From Bradyrhizobium sediminis (GTDB lineage: Bacteria; Pseudomonadota; Alphaproteobacteria; Rhizobiales; Xanthobacteraceae), in assembly GCF_018736085.1 (NCBI RefSeq), contig NZ_CP076134.1:3296501-3360500 (forward strand): a stretch of DNA of 64,000 nucleotides, read 5' to 3'. Shown in pieces: positions 57,395 through 57,570 of the stretch; positions within the stretch are counted from its first letter, which is position 1, and the number at the start of each line of letters is the position of its first letter. Under the pieces are notes generated by a model. It searched no databases and was not told the origin of the DNA. It worked only from the letters and a program-made list of their open reading frames with translations. A program made the position numbers and the translations under genes.

Positions 57395-57570
57395 CAAAAT
57401 CTGCCAGAATGTGCGAACGGGCGGTTCTCACCAACCGCCCGTCGCTGGATCTGAGCCCGTTCGTGCTCGAAGGCCGTTAGAGCCTGCCGGGGAGCGTGGG
57501 ACAGATCCGGTGTCTTCCTCAACCCGAACAGTTGCATGGGCTTAGAGCCCGGACCGAGCAAGGAAGGGAG
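57395..57570 (+). ncRNA. Predicted IS110 bridge RNA
   Basis: The folded layout is a 5' hairpin (CGGGCGGTT / AACCGCCCG, 57418-57441), then two internal loops. Loop 1 is closed by GGATCTG / CAGATCC (57447-57453 and 57502-57508). It carries CGTGCTC (57462-57468), matching the left target flank CGCGCTC, and GCCGGGGAGC (57486-57495), the exact complement of the right target flank 58690-58699. Loop 2 is closed by CTTCCT / AGGAAG and carries ACAGTTGC (57528-57535), identical to the element's right end 58684-58691, and GCAAG (57558-57562), complementary to its left end CTTGT. This matches the known bridge RNA of IS110 elements. Confidence 0.72.

What the first reader, a model, noticed from the sequence alone, without database searches (positions are those of the whole stretch)
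57395..57570. IS110 bridge RNA whose guides can be read against its own insertion site
The noncoding 5' end of this IS110 element contains four short segments with the right partners. One is complementary to the right target flank over 10 of 10 bases. One matches the left target flank over 7 bases with one wobble. One is identical to the element's right end over 8 bases. One is complementary over 4 bases plus a wobble to its left end. They sit in two stem-closed loops in the order known for bridge RNAs (target loop, then donor loop), after a 5' hairpin. This gives a new natural bridge RNA with a known target, and it shows the element is programmed for a sequence in a high-copy genomic repeat.
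Basis: partly seen in the sequence, partly recalled or inferred. Interest (0 to 1): 0.88.

Follow-up and report, generated by a model that had tools for sequence, protein, structure and literature searches.

The report
IS110 guide RNA aimed at repeat
A jumping gene in a soil bacterium carries a guide RNA whose loops match the spot it jumped into, and its relatives carry changed loops that match their own spots, three of which lie in the same scattered repeat.

Summary
The window carries an IS110 element (57387-58690, between CT cores) whose non-coding left end has the four segments a bridge RNA needs. Two corrections: the '10 of 10' right match is 9 of 9 with the target (the tenth base is the element's own last base, where a handshake guide would pair), and the left match alone is chance level here (6 of 8; reached by 75% of resampled left ends). 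Relatives make the case. Over 49 sites and 14 guide pairs, guides fit their own targets better than others' (left 5.52 vs 2.83 of 6, right 3.97 vs 2.52 of 6; 0 of 20000 permutations each, G-U excluded). The target is a dispersed multi-copy repeat, and guide classes A, B and C enter it at three different points, C on the opposite strand. In one genome all 14 copies of a class B element sit in one 18-base site sequence and no free exact copy of that sequence remains. Two elements combine a B/C-type transposase with an A-type RNA end and sit at the A point. Verdict: a well supported bridge RNA, a new member of a known kind; transcription and activity are untested.

The parts
57387..58690 (+). IS110 element, left end to right end
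   Evidence: five copies in the genome share it and differ outside; IS-free copies of the site
57385..57386 (+). CT core, left copy (right copy is 58691-58692)
   Evidence: IS-free sites read straight through with one core (7 of 11 copies have CT)
58691..58692 (+). CT core, right copy
57407..57577 (+). probable bridge RNA; both ends are inferred, not mapped
   Evidence: conserved in 26 distinct left ends; no expression data
57417..57442 (+). 5' hairpin ACGGGCGGTT / AACCGCCCGT
   Evidence: consensus fold
57447..57508 (+). target-binding loop with closing stems GGATCTG/CAGATCC and CCC/GGG
   Evidence: consensus fold; not in the single-sequence minimum-energy fold
57460..57468 (+). left target guide TTCGTGCTC
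   Evidence: own versus swapped targets
57486..57494 (+). right target guide GCCGGGGAG
   Evidence: 9 of 9 with 58691-58699; own versus swapped
57495..57495 (+). candidate handshake guide C, opposite donor base G58690
   Evidence: C in all 50 sites listed; role taken from IS621 (PMC11208158)
57528..57535 (+). left donor guide ACAGTTGC
   Evidence: 8 of 8 with 58684-58691; 44 of 50 listed sites 8 of 8, the other 6 7 of 8
57553..57562 (+). right donor guide: GCAAG 57558-57562, with a possible separate AC at 57553-57554
   Evidence: GCAAG; the AC part read by eye
57578..58537 (+). IS110 recombinase gene (in-frame ATG also at 57575 and 57536)
   Evidence: PF01548 and PF02371; IS621 8wt6 E 1.7e-37
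57379..57385 (+). left target, CGCGCTC
58691..58699 (+). right target, CTCCCCGGC
57160..57386 (+). composite dispersed repeat, part left of the element (outer limit approximate)
58693..59030 (+). composite dispersed repeat, part right of the element (outer limit approximate)
   Evidence: 35 matching stretches in the genome
58954..58971 (+). place in the same repeat where class B relatives insert (core 58963-58964); not occupied here
   Evidence: 16 of 19 class B sites project to it
57236..57253 (-). place in the same repeat where class C relatives insert, on the minus strand (core 57245-57244); not occupied here
   Evidence: 7 of 10 class C sites project near it; exact core position read by eye

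Best explanation
57387-58690 is an IS110-group insertion sequence related to IS621. Its left end encodes a bridge RNA: a 5' hairpin, a target-binding loop (left guide 57460-57468, right guide 57486-57494) and a donor-binding loop (left guide 57528-57535, right guide within 57553-57562). In the excised circle, right end + CT + left end form the donor. The RNA pairs with the donor and with the target CGCGCTCTCCCCGGC in a dispersed Bradyrhizobium repeat, and the recombinase exchanges strands at the CT cores. Shown here: ends, core, complementarity to target and donor, change of guides together with targets across relatives, use of guide-matching sites. Inferred from IS621: transcription, circular form, pairing inside the complex, catalysis, handshake pairing.
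For: Ends and core. Protein domains and nearest solved relatives. Own versus swapped targets, 49 of 54 sites, 14 guide pairs: left guide 5.52 vs 2.83 of 6 and right guide 3.97 vs 2.52 of 6 non-core positions, 0 of 20000 permutations; with G-U allowed 0 and 1 of 20000; right guide within classes 30 of 20000. Best match of left target anywhere in the left end includes the target loop in 54 of 54 sites (only there in 34), of the right target in 43 of 49 (only there in 31); the loop is 21% of the left end. G102: 14 of 14 copies in ACGCCCCTCTGGTGGGAC, 0 of 7 free near-matches exact (Fisher 8.6e-6). L180, whose right flank was not in the swap test: right guide fits CTCTCAT over 7 of 7. Insertions with no match to the repeat still fit guides in part (L064, L091, L092).
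Against: No expression or activity data. Structure has little covariation (1 of 40 pairs), and the single-sequence fold differs. The permutation treats 14 guide pairs as independent although they fall into a few related classes. 8 of 49 sites have at most two consecutive Watson-Crick pairs beyond the core on the right; L020 fits the left guide only with a shift. The left match of the window's own element is chance level by itself.
Confidence: 0.93

Rival explanations
1. The transposase protein itself recognises the repeat, and the matches in the left end are coincidental.
For: Most sites lie in one repeat family, and guide classes largely follow the protein tree.
Against: Guides fit own targets beyond permutation. 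L010 and L033 have B/C-type proteins but A-type left ends and sit at the A point (moderate support). Single-base fit separates occupied from free sites in G102.
Confidence: 0.04
2. The loop sequences are pieces of the repeat picked up by the element, not guides.
For: Guides resemble the repeat, and the repeat is everywhere in these genomes.
Against: The matches sit in a fixed frame of conserved bases, on the two strands as expected of left and right guides, and stop after about 8-9 bases; the donor loop fits the element's own ends in the same way; off-repeat insertions fit too (L091, L092).
Confidence: 0.02
3. The copies were spread by recombination between repeat copies that already held the element, not by targeted insertion.
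For: L001, L002 and L004 share the same immediate target sequence and similar repeat flanks.
Against: L003 and L005 have different flanks; the 14 G102 sites vary next to the target and in outer flanks; some insertions lie outside the repeat.
Confidence: 0.05

Closest known systems
IS621 bridge RNA system of E. coli (PMC11208160, PMC11208158; passages read)
   Same: DEDD recombinase with Tnp domain, CT core, RNA in the left end, order 5' hairpin - target loop - donor loop; left donor guide ends at the first core base; right donor guide CAAG plus a G-T pair; base after the right guide fits the handshake position; target in a genomic repeat
   Different: other target and repeat; left target guide stops at the first core base (IS621's is described as A50-U58); right guide 9 of 9 here against 4 in IS621 (7 when extended)
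seekRNA of IS1111/IS110 elements (PMC11187229; passages read)
   Same: RNA from the element's non-coding region selects the target
   Different: mostly IS1111 elements with the non-coding region downstream of the transposase gene; here it lies upstream
IS110 elements in REP repeats: ISPpu9, ISPpu10, ISPa11, ISRm19 (PMC1525189; passages read)
   Same: copies sit at one point of a genomic repeat
   Different: here one IS clade uses three points of one composite repeat, one on the other strand, with guides changed to match

Membership tests
IS110 family insertion sequence | DEDD_Tnp_IS110 and Transposase_20 domains | tested here: met
   PF01548 E 5.6e-20, PF02371 E 4.6e-17
IS110 family insertion sequence | DEDD acids and catalytic serine of the recombinase | tested here: inconclusive
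   alignment to IS621 shows the acids I recall as D, E, D, D in line; the serine region aligns ambiguously (DSG next to, not on, the IS621 serine column)
IS110 family insertion sequence | 2-bp core, no target duplication beyond it | tested here: met
IS110 group (as against IS1111) | long non-coding left end, shorter right end | tested here: met
   191 bp before the gene, 153 bp after it; the difference is small
bridge RNA | left and right target guides complementary to bottom and top strand across the core | tested here: met
bridge RNA | left and right donor guides matching the element's joined ends | tested here: met
bridge RNA | 5' hairpin and two loops in the order target, donor | tested here: met
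   consensus fold and alignment, with weak covariation
bridge RNA | guides covary with targets across orthologues | tested here: met
bridge RNA | an RNA is transcribed and bound by the recombinase | not testable with these tools
   no expression data
bridge RNA | match to the published IS110 bridge RNA covariance model | not tested
   model not at hand; no Rfam family at gathering score in this part of the window

The most novel reading that the evidence does not exclude
Probability: 0.55. Interest if true: 0.62.

Novelty: new member of a known kind. Interest (0 to 1): 0.5.

Why it matters
It is a natural experiment in guide reprogramming: one recombinase clade with several guide sets, known sites, free sites that differ by single bases, and apparent exchange of the RNA end. 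That makes it testable how strict guides are in nature (for example right-target position 7 in G102), how bridge RNAs change targets, and what limits IS110 copy number. The bridge RNA as such is a known kind.

Tried and rejected
Rfam found nothing for the left end at gathering score or for an IS-free repeat copy up to E 1. A single-sequence fold did not help. The first automatic parse of element ends misplaced several left ends and was replaced by an anchored parse; counts come from then on, except that the flanks of L089, merged as a duplicate, are taken. The left guides of L013 and L016 were missed by the pattern and set by hand before the swap test. Rows dropped: L036 had no anchor; L018 is a short fragment and was not analysed; L012, L015, L017, L035 and L102 were left out of the swap test, four for lack of a right flank and L012 for a right flank of 3 bases; L102's right flank was later read as L180. 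L015, L016, L017, L035 and L112 contain stops in the frame read and were left out of the protein tree. One search missed the G102 class B copies through a pattern slip and was rerun. The plasmid collection gave one partial match to the repeat, under a hypothetical protein, so the nature of the repeat stays open. The patterns were taken from occupied sites, so the free-site counts concern those patterns only. The 35-39% identical IS110 relatives were not analysed. The 12-1 class comparison by tree: class A on the protein tree needs 2 changes, class B 4, class C 2, so the number of guide switches is not settled.

Full report
What is there. The window lies in a single-contig genome of 5.55 Mb. 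Nine of the ten loci found in the named genome collection are Bradyrhizobium, one is a Reyranella MAG contig. The gene ending at 58537 encodes a protein with the two IS110 domains; the only solved relatives by sequence are IS621 and ISCro4. A 1501-base search of the genome gave five full copies plus pieces. The copies agree from 57387 to 58690 and differ outside. Eleven IS-free copies of the flanking repeat could be read straight across the junction, 7 of 11 with CT at the core place (3 of the 14 fetched free-site loci, L051, L058 and L062, did not match the reading pattern). The element is therefore flanked by a 2-bp CT core.

Checking the four segments. The right guide matches the target over 9 of 9 bases including the core; 0.3% of resampled left ends do so, whereas 75% reach the left match of 6 of 8. 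The window's element alone thus supports only the right guide. In IS621 the base after the right target guide is a handshake guide thought to pair with the donor base next to the core after strand exchange (PMC11208158, passages). Here C57495 faces G58690, and this place is C in all 50 sites listed. The donor guides fit as in IS621: left donor guide 8 of 8 ending at the first core base, right donor guide CAAG plus a G-T wobble. An AC a few bases upstream could be the split part of the right donor guide; I read this by eye.

The comparative test. Relatives came from the named collection, the genus and the family (6 of 296 genomes at E 1e-60 or better, all in one genus). I kept loci of at least 58% identity; after merging duplicates 54 distinct sites remained. 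The guide register was set from conserved bases beside the guides, not from the fit. On the 49 sites with both flanks, 14 guide pairs fit their own targets better than others': left 5.52 versus 2.83 of 6 non-core positions, right 3.97 versus 2.52, no permutation of 20000 as good; with G-U pairs allowed, 0 and 1 of 20000. The right-guide effect survives permutation inside classes (30 of 20000). Guide pairs are related, so these are not independent trials. Misses: 8 of 49 sites have at most two consecutive Watson-Crick pairs beyond the core on the right, and L020 fits the left guide only with a shift.

Three points in one repeat. Insertion flanks were compared with the window's own repeat. Class A (left guide ending CGTGCTC or CGCGCTC): 19 of 24 sites at the window's own point; 5 without a match. 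Class B (CGCCCC or TGCCCC): 16 of 19 at one point 272 bp downstream; 3 with repeat matches nearby that project 34 to 52 bp off. Class C (TTGCGCCC): 7 of 10 at a point about 140 bp upstream on the opposite strand (projections spread over 237-265); 3 without a match. Class D (L009, 1 site): no match. In G102, 10 of 21 exact class C sites lie about 500 bp from a class B transposase gene, so single repeat copies hold both sites.

Use of sites. In G102 all 14 copies of the class B element sit in ACGCCCCTCTGGTGGGAC. None of the 7 free sites within two mismatches is exact, and 6 of 7 have C instead of T at right-target position 7, where the guide has A (Fisher 8.6e-6). The pattern was taken from the occupied sites and its last five bases lie outside the guide match. 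In G138, whose class B element has another right guide, 2 exact copies of that pattern are free. In G125, which has class C elements, 5 of 8 occupied sites are exact for the 18-base class C pattern and 1 of 20 free near-matches is (Fisher 0.003); exact free sites elsewhere are 21 of 36 in G102, 16 of 48 in G138, 6 of 18 in G114 and 2 of 13 in G000. In the window's genome 4 of 5 occupied sites fit the 14-base motif exactly against 2 of 11 readable free copies (Fisher 0.036), so two exact free sites remain there.

RNA and protein can part ways. In the protein tree L010 and L033 fall with the B/C elements; their left ends, guides masked, fall with class A (89/85 support). Identity along the element is A-like in about the first 300 to 400 columns and mostly B/C-like after, with near-ties at the far end. 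Both insert at the class A point. AU tests: 0.0285 on the left-end tree for the protein grouping; on the protein tree 0.007 for class A as one clade, but 0.161 once L009 is added. I take this as moderate evidence for exchange of the RNA end, the site following the RNA.

What is known. Bridge RNAs of IS110 elements, their loops and covariation with targets are described in PMC11208160 (passages); the structure in PMC11208158 (passages); seekRNA in PMC11187229 (passages); IS110 elements in REP repeats in PMC1525189 (passages). Literature searches (listings only) showed no title or abstract on this element or repeat. PMC10127595, listed, mentions both Bradyrhizobium and IS110 and was not opened. 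Supplementary files could not be read, and PMC11208160 covers thousands of elements, so these may be among them.

Verdict. A bridge RNA by comparative evidence, a new member of a known kind. The re-guiding within one repeat and the exhaustion of exact sites in one genome are what a specialist would want to follow up.

Noticed in passing
16419-16708, minus strand: Two Rfam group II intron matches (RF02001, RF01998).
   Followed up: no
57060-57145: A separate inverted-repeat pair inside the intergenic region (GCGAGCGCAGCGAAGCAATCCATTC and its reverse complement), also matched in the flanks of several relatives' insertions.
   Followed up: no
57160-57386 and 58693-59030: The composite repeat is long, multi-copy and of unknown nature; no Rfam match up to E 1 on an IS-free copy, one partial plasmid match under a hypothetical protein.
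   Followed up: partly
L009, about 2290-2312: The class D relative sits in another sequence with inverted-repeat character (..GCGCTTCGCGCCGAC CT CTCCCGCAAGCG..) that does not match the composite repeat.
   Followed up: no
L006, around 1581: An isolated left end of the element in the same genome: the match covers query 8-197 only.
   Followed up: no
genomes G005, G017, G055, G094 and others: Many multi-copy IS110 relatives at 35-39% identity in the genus, a ready set for the same guide-target test.
   Followed up: no
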